From positions 1 through 62,825 of the forward strand of contig WFTQ01000047.1 of NCBI GenBank assembly GCA_015485355.1: a DNA stretch of 62,825 bases. Direction: 5' to 3'. The translations under genes and the position numbers were made by a program. The notes beneath the pieces are model-generated. The model did not search any database. It saw only the letters and a program-made list of their open reading frames with translations, and was not told the DNA's origin. Position 1 is the stretch's first letter. Every line of letters starts with the position of its first letter. The stretch is from a bacterium. Lineage in GTDB: Bacteria; Calditrichota; Calditrichia; RBG-13-44-9; J042. This document shows positions 8,245-20,915 of the stretch, piece by piece.

Positions 8245-11028
8245 TTATTTATATCCGAACACGGCCGAATAAATGATCAATACAATCAGGGTAATGCCGA
8301 TGGTTAGAAAAATGCCGCCGAAGATGCGCACCAGGCGTTCCCACTGAGGGGTGATATCCTTTTTAACCAGCCGTTTTTTCAACTCCCCACTGGCCTTCAT
8401 TTCCGCGTATTCCCGGGGACGCACAATCTTAAACTCCTCCAGGGGGACCAATCCGGTAAAGATGACCGTATCCAGCGGGAAGGCTTCCGGGCGCAAATGG
8501 GTATTGAAAAAATGGACCGTAAAGATAAACCCTACCGCTAAGAGGGCTTCGTCGCTGTGCACGATGTGGGCCACGTTGATCAACCAGCCGGGTAAAAATC
8601 GGGTAAAAAATTCCGGGAACCAGAGCATCAACCCGGACAAGCCGATCACCGCCACTCCCCAGAACACGGCGAAATAATCGAATTTTTCCCAGTACGTCCA
8701 GCGCCCGTAAGCGGGACGGGGTCCAAGTCCGAAAAACCACTTCATAGTGGCCCAAAAATCTTTCACATCCTGTTTATTGAACATGATCGAATGGGGCCCG
8801 AAGAGGAACCGTTTCCAGCTGATTTTCTTTTTGCGCTTCAATTTTATCAGCGAAATCAGATGGTAACCGAAATAACCAAACGTAATAAGCGCCCCGATGC
8901 GATGAATGATGCTGGCCACCTTCACCCCGCCGATCATGTCGGCCAAAAATTTGGCCCAGGGCATGCCGGCAAATTTCAGCATCATTCCGGTCAGGGCCAA
9001 ACCCATAAAACTTACAATTACAAACAAGTGGGTGATCCGCTGTTCCCGGGTAAAACGCTGAATATAGTATCGGCTCAACGATGAATTGGACCGGTGTTTT
9101 TTCCGTTCCCTCACGCCCTGAATGGATCGCGGCAACCACAACAGGGTGTGAATCCCAAAAAACCCGAACACCCCGATCAGCAACGAGGTCATGAACCAAT
9201 AGGTATAAAACAGAATGGGGTATTTGACTTTGTCGTGATGGGTGGCATGGGTCAAATACCCCGTGAAACGCTCATTGGCATCCTCGTGGCACTTCCGGCA
9301 GGTTTTCACGATATTCTTCACCCCTACGGCGGAGTTGGGATTGTTTACCGCCAGAATTTTATGATCCCCGTGACAATCACTGCACTTTGCGGCTTTCAAA
9401 TAGCCCAGCTGATAGGTCTTCCCATGAATGGTTTGAAAATATGTTTGCGCCAACTCGCGATGACAGGAACCACAGGTCTGGGTCACCTCGGTTAAAAATT
9501 GATCCTGACGCGTTTCCACAATGCCATGGGCGGTATGACAATCCGCACACGTCGGCAGCTTTTCGTCCTCCCTGGCGCGATTAATGGCATGCACACTTTG
9601 TACATACTCTTTGTAGATGCCCCGATGGCATGTGGCGCAGGTGGCGGGGATGTTTCGAGGAAAAATGGTGGAGCGGGGATCGTCCATGCGTAACACATAA
9701 TGGGATGTATGGCAATCGGAACACACCGCGCTGGGAAGCAACCCTTTTTCCACCAATCCCTTGCCGTGGACACTTCTGGAATAATCGTAGAACACATTAA
9801 TCTCGTGCAATCCCACCACTTTGGCGGCCTTGCCATCCTTTTTATGACATTCCCCGCACAAGGTGGGAATGTTGGCACGATAGGTGGGAGAGGTTTCATC
9901 ATAGCGGGATTTTACCCGGTGTTTCCCATGGCAATCGGTACAATAAGGGGCATCGGGACTCTTTTTAAAATAGGCCTGTCCATGCCCGCTCTGAAAATAC
10001 TGATTGGCCAGTTCTGCATGACAATTGGAACAGTCCACCCGACCGGCGGTCTGGCAGGGCCGCCGCAACCGCGGGGAAACATCCGAATGACACTTGACAC
10101 AGGGGATATTTCGATGAACACTATTGGCGATATCCTCTTTGCGCACGGTCAAGGAAATGGTTTGCCCCCCTTCTTGCTTAAAAATCGTTTCCTTGGCGTG
10201 GCACCTCAGGCAGGAACGGTCCGCCACCTTGATCACGATATTCTGCCGCCGCACCTTGTGGGGAGGATGGCAATCGGTACAGGCGGGAATGGCACCGGGC
10301 CGCTTTTCCCACAACTCCCCTTTGATCACCTTTTTGTGCACCTCTTCGATACGGGCATGACATTTCATGCAGGTTCCGGCAATGTTATTCAGGGAAATCG
10401 AAGATTTGGGATCGGTGTGGGGCAAAATTAAGTGGTTGCTATGGCAATCGTTACAAGTGGCGGTAACGATCAATCCTTTCTTGAACAACCCTTCCCCATG
10501 AATGCTCTGACTATAATTTTCCAGGATGTTGTGTTCCGATATGTTGTACACCCGGGCCACAGGCGCTCCTTCTCGATGACAGCGACCGCATAGATAGGGG
10601 ACCCTCAATTTGTTGGTGCGTGAAACAGGGTCCGTACCGGGACGGATGTCATGCGTCCCGTGGCATTCGGCACAGGTGGGGGCATAAATGTCGCCGCGGT
10701 GTAAGGCCTGCCCGTGAATGCCGATATCGAACTTCTCCTGCACATCATCGTGGCAGTTGCCACAATCCACCCGTTGCAGTTGCTCCGGATGGGGGAACTC
10801 TTCCACGGCCGCATCCTCGTGACAATCGATGCAATCGAATCCACTATGTACCGAACGGTTTAATTGGTCGATGTCGACATAAAGGGAAATCGCTTTGCCG
10901 GCGCGTTCCGTGGTCAACTCCGGGTCGTCGTGACAATCCAGGCAATCCTCGTTGGTCTGGGCGGAGAGGTGCAGGGACAACCCCATTGTGAAAATTATAA
11001 CAAGAAGGTGAGGTCGTTGACACCACAT
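8245..11028 (-). CDS. CbcL-like giant cytochrome: 19 haem-c motifs fused to membrane cytochrome b domain
   Basis: 927 residues. After a signal peptide come about 580 residues with 19 CXXCH motifs, mostly in paired units with following HGxH or HxxH histidines. A C-terminal membrane domain (about 600-927) has about six helices and histidine pairs suited to b-type haem (IIHRIGAL, GYHL, VHSDEA, VHFFNTHLRP). This is the layout of Geobacter CbcL (multihaem c domain plus HydC/FdnI-like b domain), but CbcL has about half as many c-haems. Predicted role: inner-membrane quinol oxidation with electrons passed along periplasmic haems. The ATG at 11028 is preferred over TTG at 11037 because AAGGA lies 9 bases before it. 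Residues 110-225 and 345-470 are duplicates. Divergent from its paralogue at 11198. Confidence 0.88.
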   Translation of the reverse strand: MWCQRPHLLVIIFTMGLSLHLSAQTNEDCLDCHDDPELTTERAGKAISLYVDIDQLNRSVHSGFDCIDCHEDAAVEEFPHPEQLQRVDCGNCHDDVQEKFDIGIHGQALHRGDIYAPTCAECHGTHDIRPGTDPVSRTNKLRVPYLCGRCHREGAPVARVYNISEHNILENYSQSIHGEGLFKKGLIVTATCNDCHSNHLILPHTDPKSSISLNNIAGTCMKCHARIEEVHKKVIKGELWEKRPGAIPACTDCHPPHKVRRQNIVIKVADRSCLRCHAKETIFKQEGGQTISLTVRKEDIANSVHRNIPCVKCHSDVSPRLRRPCQTAGRVDCSNCHAELANQYFQSGHGQAYFKKSPDAPYCTDCHGKHRVKSRYDETSPTYRANIPTLCGECHKKDGKAAKVVGLHEINVFYDYSRSVHGKGLVEKGLLPSAVCSDCHTSHYVLRMDDPRSTIFPRNIPATCATCHRGIYKEYVQSVHAINRAREDEKLPTCADCHTAHGIVETRQDQFLTEVTQTCGSCHRELAQTYFQTIHGKTYQLGYLKAAKCSDCHGDHKILAVNNPNSAVGVKNIVKTCRKCHEDANERFTGYLTHATHHDKVKYPILFYTYWFMTSLLIGVFGFFGIHTLLWLPRSIQGVRERKKHRSNSSLSRYYIQRFTREQRITHLFVIVSFMGLALTGMMLKFAGMPWAKFLADMIGGVKVASIIHRIGALITFGYFGYHLISLIKLKRKKKISWKRFLFGPHSIMFNKQDVKDFWATMKWFFGLGPRPAYGRWTYWEKFDYFAVFWGVAVIGLSGLMLWFPEFFTRFLPGWLINVAHIVHSDEALLAVGFIFTVHFFNTHLRPEAFPLDTVIFTGLVPLEEFKIVRPREYAEMKASGELKKRLVKKDITPQWERLVRIFGGIFLTIGITLIVLIIYSAVFGYK

Positions 11029-11114
11029 GATAGACAATCCTTATGCCTCTTTGGATTTCTATCCTAATCTACAAAAGTTATTTTCGCGAACCATGACAAC
11101 AATCAGTTTTTTGC

Positions 11115-11142
11115 TTGAGAATTATCATGTGAAAAATATAAT
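11115..11142 (+). promoter_or_regulatory. Sigma-70 promoter with FNR/CRP-like palindrome, cytochrome divergent region
   Basis: TTGAGA (11115-11120), 16-base spacer, TATAAT (11137-11142), reading toward the 17-haem gene at 11198. The bases 11115-11128 read TTGAG-AATT-ATCAT, eight of ten matches to the FNR-family half-sites TTGAT-N4-ATCAA, with symmetric mismatches. A dimer there would cover the -35 box, so repression or co-regulation of both divergent genes is possible. Confidence 0.5.
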
Positions 11143-11197
11143 TTGTATCGTAAATTTAAGGGCCCAAGTGGGTAAATGACAAATAAAAATTGGGATC

Positions 11198-13609
11198 ATG
11201 AAAATATTGTTCCGGATGGGGTTGGTAATCGGTCTTCTGACCCCATCCCTTTGGACGCAAACCAATTCGGAGTGCTTTGACTGCCACGACGACCCTGAAC
11301 TGACTACGGAGCGGGGGGGACGAGAGGTCTCCCTGTATATCGATCCGCTACGGTATCAGCGCTCCGCCCACGGCCGACAGCAATGCGTGGATTGCCATCA
11401 ACGGTTTGATCCCGACGCATTGCCTCACCGCCCCCGGATTCCTCCGGTGAACTGTGGTGACTGCCATCAGGAGGTTGCCCGAGTTTTCGCCGGCAGTCCC
11501 CACGCCCGGGAGCTCCGTTGTGGTTCCTGTCACCGGAATCTTCATGCACCGGAGAAGCGATCCGTTCTGATCCGGCGGTGCGGGGATTGTCACGAAAGGG
11601 CATTTCGGGTAGTGGAGGCCAGCATTCACGGACGGGTTCCCAACGGGCCTTCTTGCGGGGATTGCCACTCCCCTCACCAGGCCAAAACGGTGGACACGCC
11701 TCGCTGCCTTTCCTGCCACGGCAAGAAAGAGTTTGTCCATACCAGTGTGTATCATAAGAGTCTGGAATTCATTCTGCGTTACCGGGAGAGCATTCATGCG
11801 GCGGTCATCGAATGTGCCGATTGTCATGGAGGTCATCGGATTTATCCGGCCGACTCGCTGCAATCCCGGGTGCACCGTCAAAACATCGGGCGTACCTGCG
11901 CCGCGTGCCACGAAGCGGAAGCCGCCGAGTTTGTTCATTCTGAACACGGCAAGGCCCTGGCGGAAGGTTTTGTTGGCGCGCCCACTTGCACGGATTGTCA
12001 CGGGGAACACAATATTCATCAGATCACCGATTCGCGTTCCCCGGTTTCTCGGGAACACGAAATCGAGGTATGTCTGGACTGCCATCTGGATTCTCCGGAA
12101 GTCACCCGCCGCATGACTCACAGCAAGGCGTTTATCGCCGACTATACCCGCAGCATCCACGGGCGGGTATTTCAACAGGGCAAAACCGAAGTGGCCATTT
12201 GCAGCGATTGTCACACGGCCCATAGTGAGCGTAAGGCCTCCGATCCGTCATCCACGGTGTACAAGTTTAACATACCCAAAACCTGCGGTCGATGTCACGA
12301 GTCGGTCGTAACGCCCTACACCGCCAGCATCCACGGCAAGGCCCTGGCCCGGGGAGTGGAAGACGCCCCAACCTGTACCGACTGCCATGGGGAACACAAC
12401 ATCATCGAAGCGGAGCGGCCGGAGTCTCCGGTGTCTCCGCAACATGTATCGGAGGAAGTTTGCGCCCCCTGCCACCGTTCCGTTCGGCTGGCCGAGAAGT
12501 TCGGGCTCCCATCGGATCGCTACACCTCTTACATCGACAGCTACCATGGTCTGGCCGTGCGGGCGGGGCAGGTTCAGGCGGCCAATTGCGCCAGCTGTCA
12601 TGGAGTCCACGATATTCTGCCCTCCACCGATCCCAACTCCCGGGTCAACAAGGCCAACCTGGCCCGGACCTGCGGCGAATGTCATCCGGGGGCCGGGGAA
12701 AATTTTGCCAAAGGCAAGGTGCACATCGTCCGGACGCCCGAGGGAGATCAATGGCTTTACTGGATCAGCAGCCTTTACATGGCTCTCATTGTGGTGACCA
12801 TCGGCTTTATGGCCTTGCACAATGCGCTGGATTGGTTTCGCAAACTCATCGAACGGTACCGAGAGCGTTACACCACCGCCATCCCGGGCCCCTCCGAACA
12901 CCAAAGCAATTTGTATCTGCGCATGACGGTCAACGAGCGCATCCAGCATGCCGTGCTGGCCATCAGCTTTTTCGCCCTGGTCTTTACCGGTTTCATGCTC
13001 AAATTTCCGGACGCCTGGTGGGTGGTGTTATTGCGCCGCCTGGGGGGAGTGACGATTTTCGAGCTTCGGGGGATTGTACACCGGGTGGCTGCGGTGGTCA
13101 TGGTGGCCGACGCCCTCTATCACCTGTATTATGTGATCTTTACCGCGCGAGGCCGGCAATTCATCAAAGACATCCGCTTCCGGGGTCAGGACTTTCGGGA
13201 CATGGTTCAGCTTTTAAAATATAATTTGGGGAAAACGAAAACCAGACCCAAATTTGGACGTTTCAATTATATAGAAAAAAGCGAATATTGGGCCCTGATC
13301 TGGGGGACAATCGTCATGACCGTCACCGGCGTGGCGCTGTGGTTCGAATCCGAGTTCATCGGGCTGTTCTCGCTGCTGTTTGTGGAAGTCTGCGAAATCA
13401 TTCATTACTATGAAGCCTGGCTGGCTTTTCTGGCCATCGTTGTCTGGCATTTTTATTATGTCATCTTTAATCCGGACGTCTACCCGATGAACTTTTCCTG
13501 GTTGACCGGAACACTCACGGAAGAAGAAATGGCCAAAGACCATCCGTTGGAGTTGGAAAAAATGCCACCCATTACCGGTACACGGAACTCCCCATCGGAA
13601 ACCCATTGA
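11198..13609 (+). CDS. CbcL-like giant cytochrome: 17 haem-c motifs fused to membrane cytochrome b domain
   Basis: 803 residues. Signal peptide (about 1-20), then about 480 residues with 17 CXXCH motifs. The last 290 residues form a membrane domain of about five helices with histidine-rich stretches (ERIQHAVLAI, GIVHRVAAV, ALYHLYY, EIIHYYEAW, VWHFYYV). The N-terminus shares CxDCHDDPELTTER with the divergent 19-haem protein, so the two are paralogues. Four repeats of about 52 residues each hold two haems and the pattern HGxAxxxG-CTDCHGEHNI-P-S-TCxxCH. Predicted to be an inner-membrane quinol:cytochrome c conduit like CbcL. The ribosome site is weak (TGGGA). Followed 75 bases later by the NapC-like cytochrome. 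Confidence 0.88.
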   Translation: MKILFRMGLVIGLLTPSLWTQTNSECFDCHDDPELTTERGGREVSLYIDPLRYQRSAHGRQQCVDCHQRFDPDALPHRPRIPPVNCGDCHQEVARVFAGSPHARELRCGSCHRNLHAPEKRSVLIRRCGDCHERAFRVVEASIHGRVPNGPSCGDCHSPHQAKTVDTPRCLSCHGKKEFVHTSVYHKSLEFILRYRESIHAAVIECADCHGGHRIYPADSLQSRVHRQNIGRTCAACHEAEAAEFVHSEHGKALAEGFVGAPTCTDCHGEHNIHQITDSRSPVSREHEIEVCLDCHLDSPEVTRRMTHSKAFIADYTRSIHGRVFQQGKTEVAICSDCHTAHSERKASDPSSTVYKFNIPKTCGRCHESVVTPYTASIHGKALARGVEDAPTCTDCHGEHNIIEAERPESPVSPQHVSEEVCAPCHRSVRLAEKFGLPSDRYTSYIDSYHGLAVRAGQVQAANCASCHGVHDILPSTDPNSRVNKANLARTCGECHPGAGENFAKGKVHIVRTPEGDQWLYWISSLYMALIVVTIGFMALHNALDWFRKLIERYRERYTTAIPGPSEHQSNLYLRMTVNERIQHAVLAISFFALVFTGFMLKFPDAWWVVLLRRLGGVTIFELRGIVHRVAAVVMVADALYHLYYVIFTARGRQFIKDIRFRGQDFRDMVQLLKYNLGKTKTRPKFGRFNYIEKSEYWALIWGTIVMTVTGVALWFESEFIGLFSLLFVEVCEIIHYYEAWLAFLAIVVWHFYYVIFNPDVYPMNFSWLTGTLTEEEMAKDHPLELEKMPPITGTRNSPSETH

Positions 13610-13684
13610 GGGGAACGATGCGGCATGCAGACAGCGAGTGATGAAACAGAAGGTCGAGGTTAACCTAACGATGAGGAGTGAAAG

Positions 13685-15691
13685 GTGAAACGATTGAAGG
13701 CGTTGTTGAGAATGACGCGGAAAAGCTGGAAGGCCAAACTGTTGGTCGGATTTTTGGCGCTGGTGCTCACTACGGTGTTTTCGGCCGAATTTACGTCCCG
13801 TCCCTCGTTTTGTCCCACGTGCCATTACATGGAACCCTTTTACGAAAGCTGGAAAGCTTCTTCCCACAATGACGTGAGTTGCGTGACCTGCCACTTCCCT
13901 CCGGGACTGGCGGGTACCATTCGGGGAAAAATGGAAGGGCTGGTTCAGGTAGTCAACTATCTGGCCCGTTCCTACACCCGCCGGCGCCCCTGGGCGGAAA
14001 TCACCGATGCTTCCTGTTTGCAGAGCGGCTGCCACCAGACCCGCTTGCTTAAGGGCAAGGTCATTTTCAAAGGGGTGGTGTTCGACCATCAGGATCATTT
14101 GACCGAAATGCGGCGGGGCAAAAAATTGCGTTGCACCAGTTGCCATTCGCAAATCGTACAGGGAGACCACATGGTGGTGACCGAGACCACCTGCTTTCTG
14201 TGCCACTTCAAACGCAGCGGAGATGTGGACCCTCAACTGGTGACCAAACTCTCCAATTGTCAGAAATGCCATCACTGGGAATCCATTCCCAAGGAAGAAA
14301 TGGTGGATTTTCGTTTCGACCACACGAATGTGGTGAAACGCCACATCGATTGTACCCGCTGCCATTCGCAAACGGTCATCGGGGATGGATTCGTGCCCAA
14401 AGAGAACTGCTATGCCTGCCATTTCGATTACGAACGGTTAAGTAAATACGACAACACCACCCTGCTGCACGAGGTTCACGTCTCGGAACATAAGATTGAG
14501 TGCATCCAGTGTCATCTGCAAATTCAGCATAAGATTCAAAAACTTTCTGTGGAGAAAGGCCTGGACTGCACCACTTGCCATATGAACACCCATGTGGAAC
14601 AGTTGACGCTGTTTACGGGAAAAGATGTGGACGGCATCAAGGGCATTCCCAATCCCATGTACAGGGCGGGACTGAACTGCGCCAGTTGCCACATTTTCCA
14701 CGAGGAACTGATCGGCCGGGCGGAGGTGCATGTGGCCAAACCCCAATCCTGCGAAACCTGTCACGGAAAAGGATACGCGCGCCTGCTCCAGATGTGGGAA
14801 AAGAGCGCCGATCAAAAACTGAGTCTGGTCCGCCAGGTGCTTCAACAATTCGAATCCCAAATGGAGAATCCCCAAGTCAATCATAAAAAGCGGGTGCAGC
14901 AATATATCGATCTGGCCAAAGAAGGCATCCATTTGGTTGAAGTGGGAAAGGCCATTCACAATGTGAGCTATTCCAATAAAATCTTGAAGGAAACGTATCG
15001 GCTGCTGGAGCGGGCCAACCAGGTAGGCGAGTTGCAGGTGGCCATTCCCCGGATCGTGTTCGACGTTTCTCAGCCCAGCGAATGTTTCAACTGCCATGTG
15101 GGCGTGGAAGACCTCAGCATCAACTACCAGGGTCGTACATTCCAACATTCCACGCACCTGCTTCAAGAAAAACTGCAATGCAATAAATGCCATTCCAACA
15201 TGCGGCGCCATGGGGAAATGATCCTATCGGATCGGAATTGCAATGCCTGCCATCACAAACAGGCCACCGAGGAGAACTGCTCCGAGTGCCATTCCACGGA
15301 AGAGCGGATCTACCAGGGCACCTTCGCCGAGCAAATGGAACCCGATGTGATGGCGGAGGGCGAGGTCACCTGCGCCGAATGTCACATTCCAGAAAACGAA
15401 ATTATCCGACCCGATATTTCCATGTGCGAAAGTTGCCACGAACCGGAATATGTGGACACCGGCCGCGAATGGATGGACGATGTGGATCAACTCACTGGGG
15501 AAGTGTTCGAGATCATTCAGATTCTGGAGACTGATCCCCGGATCGCCCAGCGCGAGGATTTTCAAAAACTGCGCCGCCTCTACCATCAAGTGAAACAGGC
15601 CTCCGCACGGGGGATCCACAATTACGAAGGCACCATGGCGTTCATGAACTGGCTGAAGGAGCAACTTCAACAACTGAGCCCGGGCATTTAA
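13685..15691 (+). CDS. Membrane-anchored NapC/NirT-like multihaem cytochrome, 17 CXXCH plus one CX4CH
   Basis: 668 residues, GTG start with GAGGAG six bases upstream. One N-terminal helix (about 19-36) anchors it, followed by a NapC/NrfH-like first haem with the CHxM pattern (CPTCHYM, C43) and a second at C66. Seventeen CXXCH motifs are visible, plus CLQSGCH at 111-117, a CX4CH site of the kind known in tetrahaem cytochrome c3. Residues about 370-465 lack haems and look helical; the stretch KAIHNVSYSNKIL resembles the HN-x-Y helix pattern of NrfA/HAO-type cytochromes. Likely takes electrons from quinol or from the CbcL-like partners and passes them on in the periplasm. Confidence 0.85.
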   Translation: MKRLKALLRMTRKSWKAKLLVGFLALVLTTVFSAEFTSRPSFCPTCHYMEPFYESWKASSHNDVSCVTCHFPPGLAGTIRGKMEGLVQVVNYLARSYTRRRPWAEITDASCLQSGCHQTRLLKGKVIFKGVVFDHQDHLTEMRRGKKLRCTSCHSQIVQGDHMVVTETTCFLCHFKRSGDVDPQLVTKLSNCQKCHHWESIPKEEMVDFRFDHTNVVKRHIDCTRCHSQTVIGDGFVPKENCYACHFDYERLSKYDNTTLLHEVHVSEHKIECIQCHLQIQHKIQKLSVEKGLDCTTCHMNTHVEQLTLFTGKDVDGIKGIPNPMYRAGLNCASCHIFHEELIGRAEVHVAKPQSCETCHGKGYARLLQMWEKSADQKLSLVRQVLQQFESQMENPQVNHKKRVQQYIDLAKEGIHLVEVGKAIHNVSYSNKILKETYRLLERANQVGELQVAIPRIVFDVSQPSECFNCHVGVEDLSINYQGRTFQHSTHLLQEKLQCNKCHSNMRRHGEMILSDRNCNACHHKQATEENCSECHSTEERIYQGTFAEQMEPDVMAEGEVTCAECHIPENEIIRPDISMCESCHEPEYVDTGREWMDDVDQLTGEVFEIIQILETDPRIAQREDFQKLRRLYHQVKQASARGIHNYEGTMAFMNWLKEQLQQLSPGI

Positions 15692-15729
15692 CCCGACAAC
15701 GGACAGATGTCAAAAAAAATCTACGGGGT

Positions 15730-15756
15730 TTGTATATTCGGCCCAAATCATATAAT
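15730..15756 (+). promoter_or_regulatory. Promoter of the tetrahaem cytochrome gene
   Basis: TTGTAT at 15730-15735 (or TTTGTA one base earlier, spacing 16) and TATAAT at 15751-15756, about 45 bases before the ATG, which has a strong AAGGAGG site. Suggests expression independent of the upstream cytochrome gene. Confidence 0.5.
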
Positions 15757-15800
15757 TTACAGGCGCAACATCATGACCTAATAAAACGAAGGAGGTCGCT

Positions 15801-16373
15801 ATGAAACGCTACCCAGTGGTTGTTGCTCTGATGATCCTTGTTGGATTATGGCTGGTACCTGTCTCCCCCATTCGCGCGGAAGAAAAACAGTACAAGTACG
15901 TGGGAGCGGCCGGATGCAAGACCTGTCATAAGACCAAAAAATCCGGCAACCAGTACGGCATCTGGATGGAATCGAAACATGCCAAGGCTTACGAGACCTT
16001 AAAAAGCGAAGAAGCCGCCAAAATCGCCCAGGAAAAAGGGCTGGACAAACCCGCATACGAGGCCCCCGAATGTCTGAAATGCCACGTTACCGCTTATGAT
16101 GTGGACAAAGCCCTTCTGGGCCGCAAGTACAAAATGGAAGACGGGGTTCAGTGCGAAAGCTGCCACGGGCCCGGAAGTGCCTATAAGAAGAAAAAAATCA
16201 TGAAAGACCGTCAATTAGCCATCGCCAACGGATTGAATCCGATCCTGGTGGAAGACGGTACCGCCGAAAAACAATGCAAAACCTGCCATAACGAGGAAAG
16301 CCCTACGTTCAAAGGTTTTAATTTTAAAGAACGCTGGGAACAGATTAAACACCCCGTTCCTGCGAAACAGTAA
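15801..16373 (+). CDS. Periplasmic tetrahaem cytochrome, c554 family
   Basis: 190 residues. Signal peptide to about residue 26 (PIRAEE), then four CXXCH motifs: CKTCH, CLKCH, CESCH and CKTCH. The layout (GCKTCHK near 38, HAKAYETL, CxKCHVTAY, GVQCESCHGPG, final CKTCHNEESP and KHP) is that of the cytochrome c554/c-prime family. Such proteins shuttle electrons in the periplasm. Its own promoter and a downstream terminator make it a single-gene unit beside the larger cytochromes, for which it is a natural redox partner. Confidence 0.88.
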   Translation: MKRYPVVVALMILVGLWLVPVSPIRAEEKQYKYVGAAGCKTCHKTKKSGNQYGIWMESKHAKAYETLKSEEAAKIAQEKGLDKPAYEAPECLKCHVTAYDVDKALLGRKYKMEDGVQCESCHGPGSAYKKKKIMKDRQLAIANGLNPILVEDGTAEKQCKTCHNEESPTFKGFNFKERWEQIKHPVPAKQ

Positions 16374-16435
16374 AGGGGACCGGTCCTGAAATTCCGCATG
16401 TGGGCTCGAATCTAAGCGGCGCGTTAGACGGTACG

Positions 16436-16464
16436 ATCCCCCCTTGGATGTAGGGGGGATTTTT
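16436..16464 (+). terminator. Rho-independent terminator after the tetrahaem cytochrome
   Basis: Stem ATCCCCCC (16436-16443) with GGGGGGAT (16453-16460), nine-base loop, then a T-run. Classic intrinsic terminator. Confidence 0.85.
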
Positions 16465-16595
16465 ATGCGCTTATTTGTGATTCAATTCACATATGGTTTC
16501 TACGATCATCCCCGCCCGCGCAACATCCCGATTCCACAACCTCCGCGGCACCCCAACCGCCACCCGGAGGCCGGAGGAATCCCCTCCAATCCCTT

Positions 16596-16733
16596 GGTCC
16601 CGGAAATGTGCGAGAGCTGGAAAACGCCATCGAGCGGACCATCGTTTTCGGCCGGCACCCGGAATCCGTCCTCAGCCCCTTCCCGTGTCCGGGAAACCGC
16701 CTTTTCCTCATCCCAAGCCGGTTCTTTCTTTAG
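16596..16733 (+). pseudogene. Relic of an NtrC-type sigma-54 activator (C-terminal AAA+ fragment)
   Basis: The frame reads GPGNVRELENAIERTIVFGR (16596-16655), an almost perfect match to the conserved WPGNVRELENAIER block at the end of the sigma-54 interaction domain, then drifts into unrelated sequence before a TAG at 16731-16733. Upstream in the same frame nothing matches the AAA+ core, and there is no start codon or ribosome site. So this is a fragment, not a gene. The intact regulator at 18677 has a variant block (EWKGQIRELENVIERALIL), so the relic did not arise as a simple recent copy of it. The rest of 16374-16835 holds a terminator and no gene. Confidence 0.7.
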
Positions 16734-16835
16734 CAGGCTTTCAGCCCGGTGACAGCGGACGACAGACCGTGGATTAGTGTTTTCAATATCCCACCGATCA
16801 TCTTATATTTTATTGATCCAGGGGAGGAAAGACCC

Positions 16836-18680
16836 ATGCTCAGGAAAGTCGACCGACTGATTTTGAATCAACTGAAAAGCATTCGGAGTAAATTTTTACT
16901 GGGATTTTTCGTCCTTTCCATTGTGCCCATCATTGTCATCTCCGTTGCCGGGTATCAAATGACCAAAAACATGATTGTGCAAAGCAGTTTTCGTTATCTG
17001 GCTCTACGGAACGAAACGGCTTGTAACGCTGTGCTGCAATTCTTACAGGAAAGTCGTCAGATGCTGTCACCGTACACGACCGCTAACCGGCGTCGCTATC
17101 AGCAAATAATGGTCGATTTTCAATTGGATACCGCCGAGCCAATGCCCCGGGATGCTGCGGTCCGGAAGTGGTTTCATACCCTGCGGTCTTCCGGGAATTT
17201 TAAAAATATTTGGCTGATCGACCGTCATTTACAAGTGCGCTGGTCGCTGGAACCCGACTCTTTACCGCTCCAGACGCACTGGTTGGTGTCCCTACCCCGG
17301 GACACGCTGGTCGCTCTTCCCCGAACGCGTCGGCACGGGAATCACGATTTTTTTTGCGTCCATACTCTGCAGAACAGCCGGGGGCGGACCCTCGGTTACG
17401 TTGTGGGTCAGTTAAATCAAAAAGCCCTGTTGAAATATTTTCCCCGCACAGGGGAGGCCATCCAGAATCCCCGGATTTCCATCCTGCGGGGTGAAAGCGA
17501 GATTTTGCTTTGCTCCCTTCGAGGAGGGGCGCAAACCTCTCCCTTGTTAAAGATGCAATCCCTGAACAGCGAGGAAGCCCGCGTGGTAACCCTGGATAAC
17601 GGCGAAAAGGTCATTCGGCACGTGCGCCCGTTGGGTTTTCTGGACTGGAAGATCATGTCCGAGATTCCGTATCGGATCGCCCTGGCCAATGTCATTCGAT
17701 TTCGCAACCAGGCCCTGGCCGGGGTGGGGTTGTTACTGGTACTGATTGCTTTGCTGGCCATTTATTTGAGTCGGTTGTTAACCGTGCCCATCCAAGAGTT
17801 GGCCGATACGGCCCGCCGGATCGGCGAAGGGAATCTATCGGTAAAGGTGCCGGTACTCACCCGGGACGAAATCGGGCACCTGGCGCGGGCCTTCGATGAA
17901 ATGCGCCGGCAGCTTAAAGACCTGTACGAAAACCTGGAGAAAAAGGTGAACGAACGCACCGAAGAACTTCGCAAGGCGCAATTCCAGATTCTGCATCAGG
18001 AGAAAATGGCTTCCCTGGGATTGATGGCCGCCGGTATCGCCCACGAGATCGGCAACCCCCTGACTTCGATCTCCTCGGTCATCCAGTTGATGAAACGGCG
18101 ACTAAAAGACCCCCACCTTCAGCAGGATGTGGAAGCCATTCAGGAAAACATTCGTCGCATCTCCCGGATCGTTCGGGAGCTGGTCGACTTTTCCCGGCCT
18201 ACCAGTGAGGAACTGCAACCCACGGACGTCAACCGGGTAATCCAGTCCGCCGTGGGAATCATGCGCTACGATCAACGGGCCAAGCACATCGCTTTCCACG
18301 TGAATCTGGATCCCGGCCTTCCGCCCTTAACCCTGGTGGCCGATCAACTCCAGCAGGTGCTGATCAACATCCTGGTCAACGCCCTGGACGCCATGGAGAG
18401 TCGGGGAAAGGACTTATACGTGCGCAGCAAACGCTACGATCGAAGAGTGGTTATCGAAGTCGAAGATACGGGCATCGGCATCCCCGGAGAAGCGCTCTCC
18501 AAAATCTTTGAACCGTTTTTTACCACCAAAGACGTGGGCAAAGGCACCGGTCTGGGGTTAACGGTCAGCTACGGTATTATCCGTAAGTTCAAAGGAGACA
18601 TCGAAGTGCAAAGCCGGGTCAATCAGGGCACCATCTTTCGGATTATCCTTCCCATCGAATCGGAGGAGGAAGCGGCATGA
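16836..18680 (+). CDS. Membrane sensor histidine kinase (Cache-like sensor, HAMP, HisKA, HATPase)
   Basis: 614 residues from the ATG at 16836, chosen because GGGGAGGAAA precedes it. Helix 1 (about 25-47), a periplasmic sensor region of about 240 residues, helix 2 (about 290-312), a HAMP domain ([19 protein letters not shown]), then a short coiled coil. The kinase core has the phospho-acceptor H403 ([15 protein letters not shown]), N-box ([14 protein letters not shown]), G1 (EDTGIGIP) and G2 ([11 protein letters not shown]). No haem motif in the sensor. The stop overlaps the start of the regulator gene by four bases, so they are a cognate pair. Confidence 0.93.
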
Positions 18681-20026
18681 GCGCCCGAATACTCATTGTC
18701 GATGACGAAAGAACCATCCGTCACACCCTTTCCACGGTGCTGGAAGAGGAGGGGTTTCAGACCGACATCGCTGAAAACGGCGACATGGCCCTGCAAAAAA
18801 TACGGGAGCGGGACTTTGATCTCGTGATCACCGATTTGCGCATGCCCGGTATGGAAGGGTTGGAGCTGTTAGAAAAAATCAAATTGATGGCGCCCCGGAC
18901 CTCCGTCATGATCATCACCGCTTACGGCTCTCTGGAAAGCGCCATTCAGGCCCTGCGTTTGGGCGCTTACGACTATATCGTAAAGCCTCTGGATTTCGAA
19001 GATGTTCTGTTGCGCATCAAGCGGCTGATGGAACATCGGGAATTGATTCAGGAAAACCAAATCCTTCGAGAAGCGGTAGAGAAGAAATACAGTTTCTCCA
19101 ACATTATCGGAGAAAGCCCCGCCATGAAGCGGGTGTTCCGCATGATCCAGAAAGTTTCCCGGACCAAAGGGAACGTGCTGATCACCGGAAAAAGCGGCAC
19201 CGGAAAGGAGCTGGTGGCCCGGGCGATCCATTTCCATTCTCCCCGTAAGAACAGACCGTTTGTGGCCATTAATTGCGGCGCAATTGTCGACACGCTTATG
19301 GAAAGCGAGTTGTTCGGCCACAAGAAAGGAGCGTTCACCGGCGCCACCCGGGACAAAGATGGATATTTCAAAGTGGCCGACGGTGGAACGCTGTTCCTGG
19401 ACGAGGTGGGCGAAATTCCCCTGCATTTACAGGTCAAGTTGCTTCGGGCCATCGAAACCGGAGAAATCACCCCTGTCGGTGCGACCGAACCCATTTCAGT
19501 GGACGTGCGCATCATTGCGGCCACCCACCGGGACCTGGCCGGAGAAGTGGAAAAGGGGAATTTCCGGGAAGACCTATACTATCGGCTGAACGTCATTGAG
19601 ATCAAGCTTCCCTCGCTTTCGGAACGCAAAGAAGATATTCCCCTGTTGGTTCACCATTTCATCGAAAAATACAATCGAGAATTGAACCGTCGGATTCGCG
19701 GAGTGGACAACGAGACCATGAAAATCCTGATGAACTATGAATGGAAAGGCCAGATCCGGGAACTGGAAAACGTCATCGAGCGGGCCCTCATCTTAGCCGA
19801 GGGAGATCGGATTACACCGCAGGATTTGCCCGCCAATCTGGTTCAAGAGGCCCGTTATCTGGAAGCCAATCCGGCAACGTTAAAACACGCCCTGGCCCAG
19901 TTCGAAAAGCAACACATTCGGAAAATATTAAAGGAGGCGGGGGGCGACAAAGAAAAGGCCGCCCGGCTTCTGGGAATCGGACTATCCTCGCTGTATCGTA
20001 AAATTGAGGCACATGGATTGAAATAA
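18677..20026 (+). CDS. NtrC-family sigma-54-dependent response regulator
   Basis: 449 residues. Receiver domain 1-120 with acidic pocket D9/D10, phospho-acceptor D53 (ITDLRMPG) and K near 103. AAA+ domain about 138-370 with Walker A GKSGTGKE, the sigma-54 contact loop GAFTGA, Walker B TLFLDEVGE and arginine-finger region REDLYYRLNVI. C-terminal Fis-type helix-turn-helix (EKAARLLGIGLSSLYRKI). Encoded with the kinase just upstream (ATGA overlap). Targets are likely among nearby respiratory genes, but I found no convincing GG-N10-GC (-24/-12) promoter upstream of them. Confidence 0.94.
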   Translation: MSARILIVDDERTIRHTLSTVLEEEGFQTDIAENGDMALQKIRERDFDLVITDLRMPGMEGLELLEKIKLMAPRTSVMIITAYGSLESAIQALRLGAYDYIVKPLDFEDVLLRIKRLMEHRELIQENQILREAVEKKYSFSNIIGESPAMKRVFRMIQKVSRTKGNVLITGKSGTGKELVARAIHFHSPRKNRPFVAINCGAIVDTLMESELFGHKKGAFTGATRDKDGYFKVADGGTLFLDEVGEIPLHLQVKLLRAIETGEITPVGATEPISVDVRIIAATHRDLAGEVEKGNFREDLYYRLNVIEIKLPSLSERKEDIPLLVHHFIEKYNRELNRRIRGVDNETMKILMNYEWKGQIRELENVIERALILAEGDRITPQDLPANLVQEARYLEANPATLKHALAQFEKQHIRKILKEAGGDKEKAARLLGIGLSSLYRKIEAHGLK

Positions 20027-20049: not shown

Positions 20050-20469
20050 ATGCCGCGAATCACACGGTGGTTCTTAAAAAGCGGGCTGATGTATCTGCTG
20101 CTTGCCCTGGTGATCGAAATTCTGGTCACCTTTCCTGCGTCGGGACCTGTGGGGACCATTGCCGCCGGCATGCGCCCTCTGGCCTTTCATTTTTTCTTTG
20201 TTGGCTGGGTGGCCCAACTCATCATGGGCGTATCGCACTGGTTTTTTCCCCGTTACCGCCGCGAAGCACCCCGGGGAAAGTCAGCCCTCATCTGGGGAGC
20301 GTTTGGTTGCCTCAACGCAGGGCTGATACTCCGATTCTTCTCCGAACCAGCATTCTGGATATCCGTTTATCCCGGACGCATCTGGGTGGCCTGGATATCC
20401 GCCGGCCTCCAATGGATGGGATTTCTCCTCTACACCTTCCATATCTGGCCCAGAATACGGGGGAAGTAA
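20050..20469 (+). CDS. Four-helix membrane protein resembling a haem-copper oxidase fragment (paralogue 1)
   Basis: 139 residues, four predicted helices. Helix 2 carries PLAFHFFFVGWVAQLIMG (43-60) followed by SHWFFPR; helix 4 ends YTFHIWPR with H131. This resembles the helix-II region of haem-copper oxidase subunit I and related small uncharacterised membrane proteins. It aligns without gaps to the next gene over the P43-G60 block. Candidate haem-b ligands are H47, H63 and H131. It lies 23 bases after the sigma-54 regulator and 2 bases before its paralogue, so the two probably form one complex. Function unknown. Confidence 0.75.
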   Translation: MPRITRWFLKSGLMYLLLALVIEILVTFPASGPVGTIAAGMRPLAFHFFFVGWVAQLIMGVSHWFFPRYRREAPRGKSALIWGAFGCLNAGLILRFFSEPAFWISVYPGRIWVAWISAGLQWMGFLLYTFHIWPRIRGK

Positions 20470-20471
20470 AC

Positions 20472-20915
20472 ATGCCTCTCAGATCTCAAATCACCCTGCG
20501 ATTGGCCCTGGGATATATGGTGGCCGCGGCCACCCTGGGAGCCTGGATGCTGGTGGGAAAAACCATTCCACACACCATTGCCTGGACGAAATGGCTACCT
20601 CTCCATATCGCCTGGATGGTGGGCGGCGGTTTTCTTCAATTTATCATGGGTACCGCTTTCTGGATCCTTCCCAAATTCGCCAACCAGCCTTCCTTTTACG
20701 GAAGAGTCTATTGGTTTGATCTGGCGGTTATTTCGCTCAACGGGGGATTGTTTCTGTTCACTGTAGCCCAATTTTTGCCTCCCGGTTCCTTTTGGCAAGC
20801 CCTGAGCCGTTGGGGCTTCGGGATCGCCGTTTTCGCTTTCATCGCCCACATCTTCCCGCGAATTAAGCCCTTCCGCAGCGAGGAACCGGAAGAAAACCGT
20901 CAAGGGGGCCAATAA
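20472..20915 (+). CDS. Four-helix membrane protein resembling a haem-copper oxidase fragment (paralogue 2)
   Basis: 147 residues from the ATG at 20472. The frame is open upstream, but that part overlaps paralogue 1 and is not coding. Four helices; block PLHIAWMVGGGFLQFIMG (43-60) followed by FWILPK aligns position for position with paralogue 1, except that the histidine sits two residues earlier (H45 instead of H47). Helix 4 ends FIAHIFPRIK with H126. A heterodimer of the two proteins would place histidines from helices 2 and 4 in each subunit. Charged C-terminal tail. Function unknown; a redox or signalling partner of the upstream cytochromes is one possibility. Confidence 0.75.
   Translation: MPLRSQITLRLALGYMVAAATLGAWMLVGKTIPHTIAWTKWLPLHIAWMVGGGFLQFIMGTAFWILPKFANQPSFYGRVYWFDLAVISLNGGLFLFTVAQFLPPGSFWQALSRWGFGIAVFAFIAHIFPRIKPFRSEEPEENRQGGQ

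What the first reader, a model, noticed from the sequence alone, without database searches (positions are those of the whole stretch)
8245..16373. Divergent pair of giant CbcL-like cytochromes inside a 58-haem-motif locus
Four neighbouring genes encode 19, 17, 18 (17 CXXCH plus one CX4CH) and 4 haem-c motifs. The two largest each fuse the haem array to a membrane cytochrome b domain. The known CbcL of Geobacter has this architecture with about nine c-haems; here the wire is about twice as long. The pair share N-termini and a promoter region, so two potential-tuned quinol exits may have arisen by duplication. A two-component sigma-54 pair adjoins. Motif counts and domain order are read from the sequence; the role in extracellular or nitrogen-oxide respiration is inference.
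Basis: partly seen in the sequence, partly recalled or inferred. Interest (0 to 1): 0.85.

Follow-up and report, generated by a model that had tools for sequence, protein, structure and literature searches.

The report
Paired long-wire quinol cytochromes, CbcL type
Two neighbouring genes encode very long haem-chain proteins that probably draw electrons out of the inner membrane; they belong to a family already known from metal-breathing bacteria, but one of them has a haem chain of nearly fixed length, built by doubling an eight-haem block and shared by many bacterial phyla.

Summary
In detail: four neighbouring genes carry 19, 17, 18 (17 CXXCH + 1 CX4CH) and 4 haem-c motifs, and the two largest end in an FdnI-like cytochrome b domain with conserved histidines. 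The kind is not new: CbcL/MtrH/MtoC homologues with 3-23 motifs and up to 1034 aa are published (PMC6295460). The pair is no local duplication: A and B are two old clades, each in many phyla. New here: (i) A has exactly 19 CXXCH in 75 of the 80 best-scoring loci fetched, and its array is an 8-haem module in tandem (8+8+3); (ii) B varies (11, 13, 16, 17) in its N-terminal part, and B and an ImcH-like protein, but not A, co-occur with a 12-haem protein of a putative outer-membrane conduit (B: 17/0/1/4 of 22 good genomes, p=0.0007, not corrected for descent); (iii) C, a NapC-like cytochrome, and the ImcH-like protein were never seen together (0 of 86 loci). Best reading: A, B and C are membrane quinol dehydrogenases of a periplasm-to-outer-membrane chain, probably extracellular respiration. 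A nitrogen-oxide role is less likely but not excluded. New variant of a known kind.

The parts
8245..11037 (-). A: 930-aa CbcL-type cytochrome, 19 CXXCH + FdnI-like cytochrome b domain
   Evidence: 19 haems in 75 of 80 fetched loci; AlphaFold model of residues 2-930, pLDDT 80.8, pTM 0.59
10234..10962 (-). A, first 8-haem module (haems 1-8)
   Evidence: spacing 37,23,30,28,45,28,30,23; aligns with the second module, score 450 against 500 shuffles (mean 56.5, sd 22.5, highest 142)
9496..10230 (-). A, second 8-haem module (haems 9-16)
   Evidence: spacing 37,23,30,28,45,28,30,25; six non-motif histidines invariant in both modules of 11 species
9238..9492 (-). A, trihaem stretch (haems 17-19) before the membrane domain
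   Evidence: motifs at residues 522, 552, 580
8398..9063 (-). A, cytochrome b domain (formate dehydrogenase gamma type)
   Evidence: TIGR01583 match below cut-off; VIA-align Z 14.5, rmsd 3.0 over 205 residues to 1kqf_C
11198..13609 (+). B: 803-aa CbcL-type cytochrome, 17 CXXCH + FdnI-like cytochrome b domain
   Evidence: 11 to 17 haems in homologues
11450..11893 (+). B, 148-aa insert with 6 haems (residues 85-232), absent from the 11-haem orthologues
   Evidence: alignment A2: present in 6 rows (own genus and family f2), absent from the 10 11-haem rows
12920..13546 (+). B, cytochrome b domain
   Evidence: TIGR01583 match below cut-off; Pfam Ni_hydr_CYTB over cut-off; four histidines aligned with histidines of FdnI
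13685..15691 (+). C: 668-aa NapC/NrfH-like membrane-anchored cytochrome, 17 CXXCH + 1 CX4CH, with a haem-free stretch of about 110 residues
   Evidence: PF03264 37.6 bits over cut-off 24.1; one N-terminal hydrophobic helix; relatives with 11-17 CXXCH, some perhaps cut by contig ends
15801..16373 (+). D: tetrahaem cytochrome c554-like protein
   Evidence: PF13435 79.7 bits, cut-off 20.8; family near A in 30 of 86 distinct loci
16749..18680 (+). sensor histidine kinase (HAMP, HisKA, HATPase), no CXXCH
   Evidence: 74% identical in the sister species
18677..20026 (+). NtrC-type sigma-54 response regulator
   Evidence: 91% identical in the sister species

Best explanation
A and B are inner-membrane quinol:cytochrome c oxidoreductases of the CbcL/MtrH/MtoC type. 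The C-terminal FdnI-like helices hold b-haems that take electrons from menaquinol; the N-terminal bis-histidine c-haem array, in the periplasm, carries them away from the membrane. A's array is two tandem octahaem modules plus a trihaem; B's is an 11-haem core with a 6-haem insert. C is a third quinol-facing cytochrome (NapC type) that in this genus seems to stand in for the ImcH-like protein of its relatives; D is a small tetrahaem carrier. The acceptor is most likely an outer-membrane porin-cytochrome conduit, in this genome the cluster on contig C51 (barrel-like 408 aa, 12-haem, 7-haem protein), that is, extracellular respiration. SHOWN: genes, motifs, homology, conserved histidines, module duplication, gene linkage, co-occurrence. 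INFERRED: quinol oxidation, direction of flow, partners, the barrel nature and location of the C51 proteins, the acceptor.
For: b domain by sequence and fold (1kqf_C, Z 14.5, next row 7.9; Foldseek E 6e-5). In 81 non-redundant A sequences all 19 motif histidines and 20 other periplasmic histidines are kept in at least 95%, enough for bis-His ligation; membrane histidines 670, 712, 827, 842 are kept in every row that has the position. Linkage: B lies within 2 kb of the 12-haem gene in 9 relatives and about 5 kb away in two more that carry 17-haem B, that is 11 of the 26 relatives that have both. Co-occurrence of B with the 12-haem protein: 26/2/4/7 of 39 relatives, p=0.0006; 17/0/1/4 of 22 good genomes, p=0.0007. 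Beyond the class, single gene runs hold B, A, an ImcH-like, Rieske, cytochrome b, 11-haem, c554-like, barrel-like and 8- or 14-haem protein (L123, L139). In Bacteroidota and Chlorobiota records A sits with a DUF5777 beta-barrel (14 loci), 10 of these with a hexahaem protein. CbcL of Geobacter passes electrons to a periplasmic trihaem cytochrome (PMC9129911, passages).
Against: No biochemistry of any member was found. A itself is not associated with the 12-haem protein (p=1 and 0.62) nor with B (p=0.15 and 0.36); the ImcH-like protein is associated as strongly as B over all 39 relatives (26/2/4/7) and less in the 22 (p=0.01), so the link may reflect the whole set. 25 of 86 distinct A loci show none of B, ImcH-like, C-type, c554-like or barrel genes, though many contigs are short. 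DUF5777 is not tied to cytochromes everywhere: no multihaem gene lies near it in the own genome. The barrel nature of the 408-aa family rests on N-terminal signal-like and C-terminal aromatic residues seen by eye, a weak OmpA match of a homologue (18.1 bits, cut-off 21) and a low-confidence all-strand model of another homologue (pLDDT 44.7). The own 7-haem protein failed my lipobox pattern. No conduit gene is in the window. Fisher tests ignore shared descent, and presence was read by hand. Direction could be reversed.
Confidence: 0.6

Rival explanations
1. The set feeds periplasmic reduction of nitrite, nitrate or other nitrogen oxides: NapC-like C and c554-like D recall the HAO-c554-cM552 chain of ammonia oxidisers (recalled), run in reverse.
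For: C is NapC/NrfH-like and D c554-like, D also over Pfam's cut-off for the HAO-related PF13447. The hexahaem neighbour scanned (L080) is over the cut-off for the NrfA family PF02335, matching part of the profile. The own genome has a TAT-type molybdopterin reductase, 4Fe-4S, Rieske, cytochrome b, tetrahaem and PF13447 8-haem proteins together on contig C110, and moaA-, mobA- and moeA-like genes follow in the window. C. abyssi reduces nitrate to ammonium with Nap and eHao (PMC5317091, passages).
Against: Among 941 neighbour proteins of A in 90 loci: no match to the own molybdopterin reductase, no haem protein with CXXCK, and all 13 matches to the own eHao-like and all 45 to the other 8-haem protein are A- or B-type. 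The C110 cluster has its own Rieske/cytochrome b pair.
Confidence: 0.17
2. They work backwards, as quinone reductases for electrons from outside (MtoC type).
For: The published family occurs in Fe(II) oxidisers and Fe(III) reducers, with no feature that separates them (PMC6295460, passages).
Against: Nothing here tests direction; carbon-fixation genes were not looked for.
Confidence: 0.12
3. Another role: electron reservoir, detoxification or redox sensing rather than a respiratory exit.
For: A often stands without any of the partners (25 of 86 loci); a sensor kinase adjoins.
Against: Strict conservation of b-domain histidines and haem number and linkage to barrel and multihaem genes.
Confidence: 0.11

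Closest known systems
CbcL/MtrH/MtoC family (PMC6295460; CbcL: PMC9129911)
   Same: N-terminal CXXCH array, C-terminal HydC/FdnI-like helices with conserved histidines, spread over many phyla; published range 3-23 motifs, 416-1034 aa
   Different: A has a nearly fixed 19-haem array made of a duplicated 8-haem module; B17 has a 6-haem insert; CbcL has nine haems. No direct comparison with the CbcL sequence was made
ImcH (PMC6295460)
   Same: The 6-haem protein near A in 31 of 86 loci: the two members tested have three N-terminal hydrophobic helices, the third at a NapC-like segment
   Different: Not in the window or in this genus; C has one helix and 18 motifs
NapC/NrfH/CymA quinol dehydrogenases
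   Same: C begins with one helix and a NapC/NirT domain
   Different: C carries some 14 further haem motifs and a haem-free stretch
Formate dehydrogenase-N gamma subunit FdnI (1kqf_C)
   Same: Fold and aligned histidines of the membrane domain
   Different: FdnI is a separate subunit without c-haems
Porin-cytochrome conduits (Pcc, Mtr)
   Same: Barrel-like, 12-haem and 7-haem proteins together on own contig C51; homologues of the first two near B in relatives
   Different: No Pfam family for the 408-aa protein; barrel unproven; not in the window

Membership tests
CbcL/MtrH/MtoC | N-terminal array of CXXCH motifs | tested here: met
   19 and 17; published range 3-23 (PMC6295460)
CbcL/MtrH/MtoC | C-terminal FdnI/HydC-like cytochrome b helices | tested here: met
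   A is just under Pfam's cut-off by sequence, but its model matches 1kqf_C at Z 14.5
CbcL/MtrH/MtoC | Histidines that can ligate b-haems conserved | tested here: met
   81 A sequences; 16 B sequences
CbcL/MtrH/MtoC | Six transmembrane helices | tested here: inconclusive
   hydropathy finds 4 (A) and 5 (B); the model of A has six helices of 25 residues or more after residue 600
CbcL/MtrH/MtoC | Sequence similarity to CbcL, MtrH or MtoC themselves | not tested
CbcL/MtrH/MtoC | Quinol oxidation or quinone reduction | not testable with these tools
   needs protein
ImcH (for C) | Three N-terminal helices before the haem domain | tested here: not met
   one helix
NapC/NirT (for C) | N-terminal NapC/NirT domain | tested here: met
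   PF03264 37.6 bits, cut-off 24.1; the NrfH model TIGR03153 gives 69.5 of 134.2 needed
Cytochrome c554 (for D) | Cytochrome_C554 domain | tested here: met
   PF13435 79.7 bits, cut-off 20.8; the Nitrosomonas model NF043010 gives 49.3 of 400 needed
HAO-like octahaem fold (for the modules of A) | Fold of the octahaem core | tested here: inconclusive
   HAO-type chains at Z 6.3-7.9 over one or other module, a level the tool calls common; profile match to HAO E 0.004, weaker than to NrfB (3.6e-7) or a chain of the Mtr complex (3.2e-7)

The most novel reading that the evidence does not exclude
A is a fixed-length wire: two octahaem modules plus a trihaem welded to a quinol dehydrogenase, held at 19 haems across many phyla because its length is matched to the distance from the inner membrane to a docking site near the outer membrane, so that quinol electrons cross most of the periplasm inside one polypeptide; B is the length-adjustable partner tied to the porin-cytochrome conduit.
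Probability: 0.12. Interest if true: 0.75.

Novelty: new variant of a known kind. Interest (0 to 1): 0.45.

Why it matters
Inner-membrane quinol cytochromes are used as markers of extracellular respiration (PMC12977616, passages). A 19-haem type with a nearly fixed array, found mostly in metagenome-assembled genomes but also in named isolates (Maribellus sp. YY47, Draconibacterium aestuarii), gives a marker and a testable partner set (B, ImcH-like or C, c554-like, barrel). The module duplication shows one way in which long haem wires grow.

Tried and rejected
Local duplication of A and B: rejected by the tree (quick method, SH-aLRT only, one long row, L108). Sigma-54 control of the A-B gap: no match there; 9 matches in the window against 14 expected. 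HAO/NrfA/Nap partners beside A: none by BLAST or CXXCK, but two Pfam scores over cut-off are told under the rival explanation. DUF5777 as the own genome's conduit: its neighbours there lack CXXCH. BLASTP self-comparison of A, B and C gave no second diagonal at E 1e-3; A's repeat was seen from spacing and global alignment. In that control, shifts 1-7 overlap the first module and are not comparable; the non-overlapping wrong-register shifts 9 and 10 still scored 316 and 253 against 450 in register, so part of the score is general likeness of haem segments. HAO fold of A's modules: left open. The barrel model was too uncertain to search with; a profile of that family found nothing in the PDB below E 0.88. 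Paper searches: DUF5777, 0 papers; '19 heme' and variants, 35 papers, 25 listed, none opened, none of the listed titles on this family, 0 papers; some searches gave listings from which only PMC5317091, PMC6295460, PMC9129911 and PMC12977616 were opened, and of these passages only.

Rows dropped before counts: of 90 loci, 9 were left out of the ligand count (four duplicate contigs, two with 21 haems, three split genes), leaving 81 (checked); the four duplicates were left out of the 86-locus counts but not of the 941-protein search; the tree used 72 rows, with A thinned to about a third. Neighbour genes were taken up to 9 kb either side and are cut by contig ends.
Full report
CHECK. Four neighbouring genes at 8245-16373 carry 19, 17, 17+1 (CX4CH) and 4 haem-c motifs, 58 in all. 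A sister species keeps order and counts. The window lies in a 3.44-Mb assembly of 114 contigs; the nearest named record for A is a Calditrichota metagenome-assembled genome (92%), so the organism is probably of that phylum (inference).

WHAT A AND B ARE. Both end in a cytochrome b domain of the formate dehydrogenase gamma type (scores against TIGR01583 are below its cut-off). In B four histidines align with histidines of FdnI; that these are FdnI's b-haem ligands is recalled, not from a call. In 81 non-redundant A sequences (48-91% identical to the window's) the corresponding histidines and all 19 motif histidines are kept, with 20 further periplasmic histidines in at least 95%, enough for a second ligand to each haem. 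The AlphaFold model of A (45 sequences, pLDDT 80.8, pTM 0.59) places the b domain on 1kqf_C at Z 14.5, rmsd 3.0 over 205 residues. So the refuter 'no b ligands or a non-redox family' is not met. The refuter 'already characterised' is half met: the class is surveyed in print with 3-23 motifs (PMC6295460, passages), but in the searches I found no work on these particular proteins.

HOW THE WIRES GREW. Motif spacing in A is 37,23,30,28,45,28,30,23, then 37,23,30,28,45,28,30,25, then 30,28: an 8-haem unit of about 244 residues twice, then three haems. The units align with one 2-residue gap at score 450, against a mean of 56.5 (sd 22.5, highest 142) in 500 shuffles that keep the haem residues; wrong-register, non-overlapping comparisons scored 316 and 253. 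In 22 units from 11 species six non-motif histidines are invariant at the same places. The commonest 11-haem B spacing (6 of 18 in that group) is 38,21,30,28,44,28,30,29,42,28, the same unit once plus three haems; so 19 = 11 + 8. Forms with 13, 16 and 17 haems differ in the N-terminal part and keep the C-terminal series 30,28,43,28,30,29,42,28 or nearly so. B17 has a 148-residue, 6-haem insert. Of 80 fetched A loci 75 have 19 motifs, 2 have 21, and 3 have the b domain in a separate frame after a 19-haem gene.

ANCESTRY. The 80 loci bear some 16 phylum labels, mostly of metagenome-assembled genomes and some doubtful. In a tree of b domains (72 rows, quick method) A and B are separated by a branch of support 100 and each spans many phyla; B17 is one group (support 93) within a starred set (98) that also holds five 13-haem forms. 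The divergent pair is therefore two old families brought or kept together. Among 86 distinct A loci, B lies within reach in 30, the c554-like D in 30, the ImcH-like protein in 31, the C type in 8, and the last two never together (chance of no overlap 0.023 if independent). In 39 relatives the ImcH-like protein has a strong match in 28 and not in the other species of this genus, nor in the own genome, while full-length C is only in this genus. C's relatives elsewhere are in records labelled Latescibacterota, Aminicenantes, Elusimicrobia and Eisenbacteria at 32-41% identity, so C may have come by transfer; no tree of C was made.

CONTEXT AND FUNCTION. In relatives B often sits beside a barrel-like protein and a 12-haem protein; homologues of both are on own contig C51 with a 7-haem protein, a Rieske protein, a cytochrome b and a 9-haem protein. 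B and the ImcH-like protein co-occur with the 12-haem protein, A does not, and A and B are not significantly associated with each other (read by hand, descent not corrected). In L139 and L123 one gene run holds both CbcL-type genes (A split in L123), the ImcH-like gene, Rieske, cytochrome b and 11-haem genes, the c554-like gene, the barrel-like gene and a 14- or 8-haem gene, the last cut by the locus end in L123. Bacteroidota and Chlorobiota records, including two named isolates, have A in a run with a CRP-type regulator, a hexahaem protein (the one printed has a lipoprotein-like start), a monohaem protein, a DUF5777 barrel, a 7-haem protein, a b561 protein, and often the ImcH-like and c554-like proteins. 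This favours extracellular respiration. A molybdopterin reductase and an eHao-like protein exist on contig C110, as Nap and eHao are described for Caldithrix abyssi (PMC5317091, passages), but nothing found ties them to A-D; two Pfam scores that lean the other way are given under the rival explanation.

CHANGES ON CHECKING. Two Pfam scores over cut-off (D to PF13447, a hexahaem neighbour to PF02335) and the missing A-B association had been left out; the odds moved slightly (best explanation 0.62 to 0.60, nitrogen-oxide rival 0.15 to 0.17).

NOVELTY. Known kind; new are the 8+8+3 build, the narrow haem number of A, the partner set, and C in place of the ImcH-like protein.

Noticed in passing
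L118:7926-10847, L123:7983-10910, L127: Type A is split into a 19-haem gene (669 aa in L118 and L123) followed by a separate b-domain gene of 286-297 aa, so wire and membrane domain can be separate subunits.
   Followed up: partly
L129:6722-8666, L068:3341-5576, L136:5510-7515: A 10- or 11-haem protein of 416-448 aa is followed by a separate 231-252 aa cytochrome b-like gene, apparently a split B.
   Followed up: no
L021:9853-12857; window 16373-16749: The sister species has an extra kinase-regulator pair, whose kinase carries one CXXCH, between D and the pair shared with the window; it is missing in the window. CXXCH-bearing kinases also lie near A in L035, L036 and L100.
   Followed up: partly
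window 20050-20915: Two small reading frames (62 and 58% identical in the sister species) without Pfam or NCBIfam match follow the regulator, ahead of mobA-, moaA- and moeA-like genes.
   Followed up: no
L064 (own contig C37): A second possible conduit cluster: 5-haem, 654-aa barrel-like and 12-haem proteins; homologues of the 654-aa protein lie near A in L088, L091 and L093.
   Followed up: partly
L080, L081, L084, L086 and others: DUF5777 barrels (PF19089) sit in one gene run with multihaem proteins and type A; no paper in the held library names DUF5777.
   Followed up: partly
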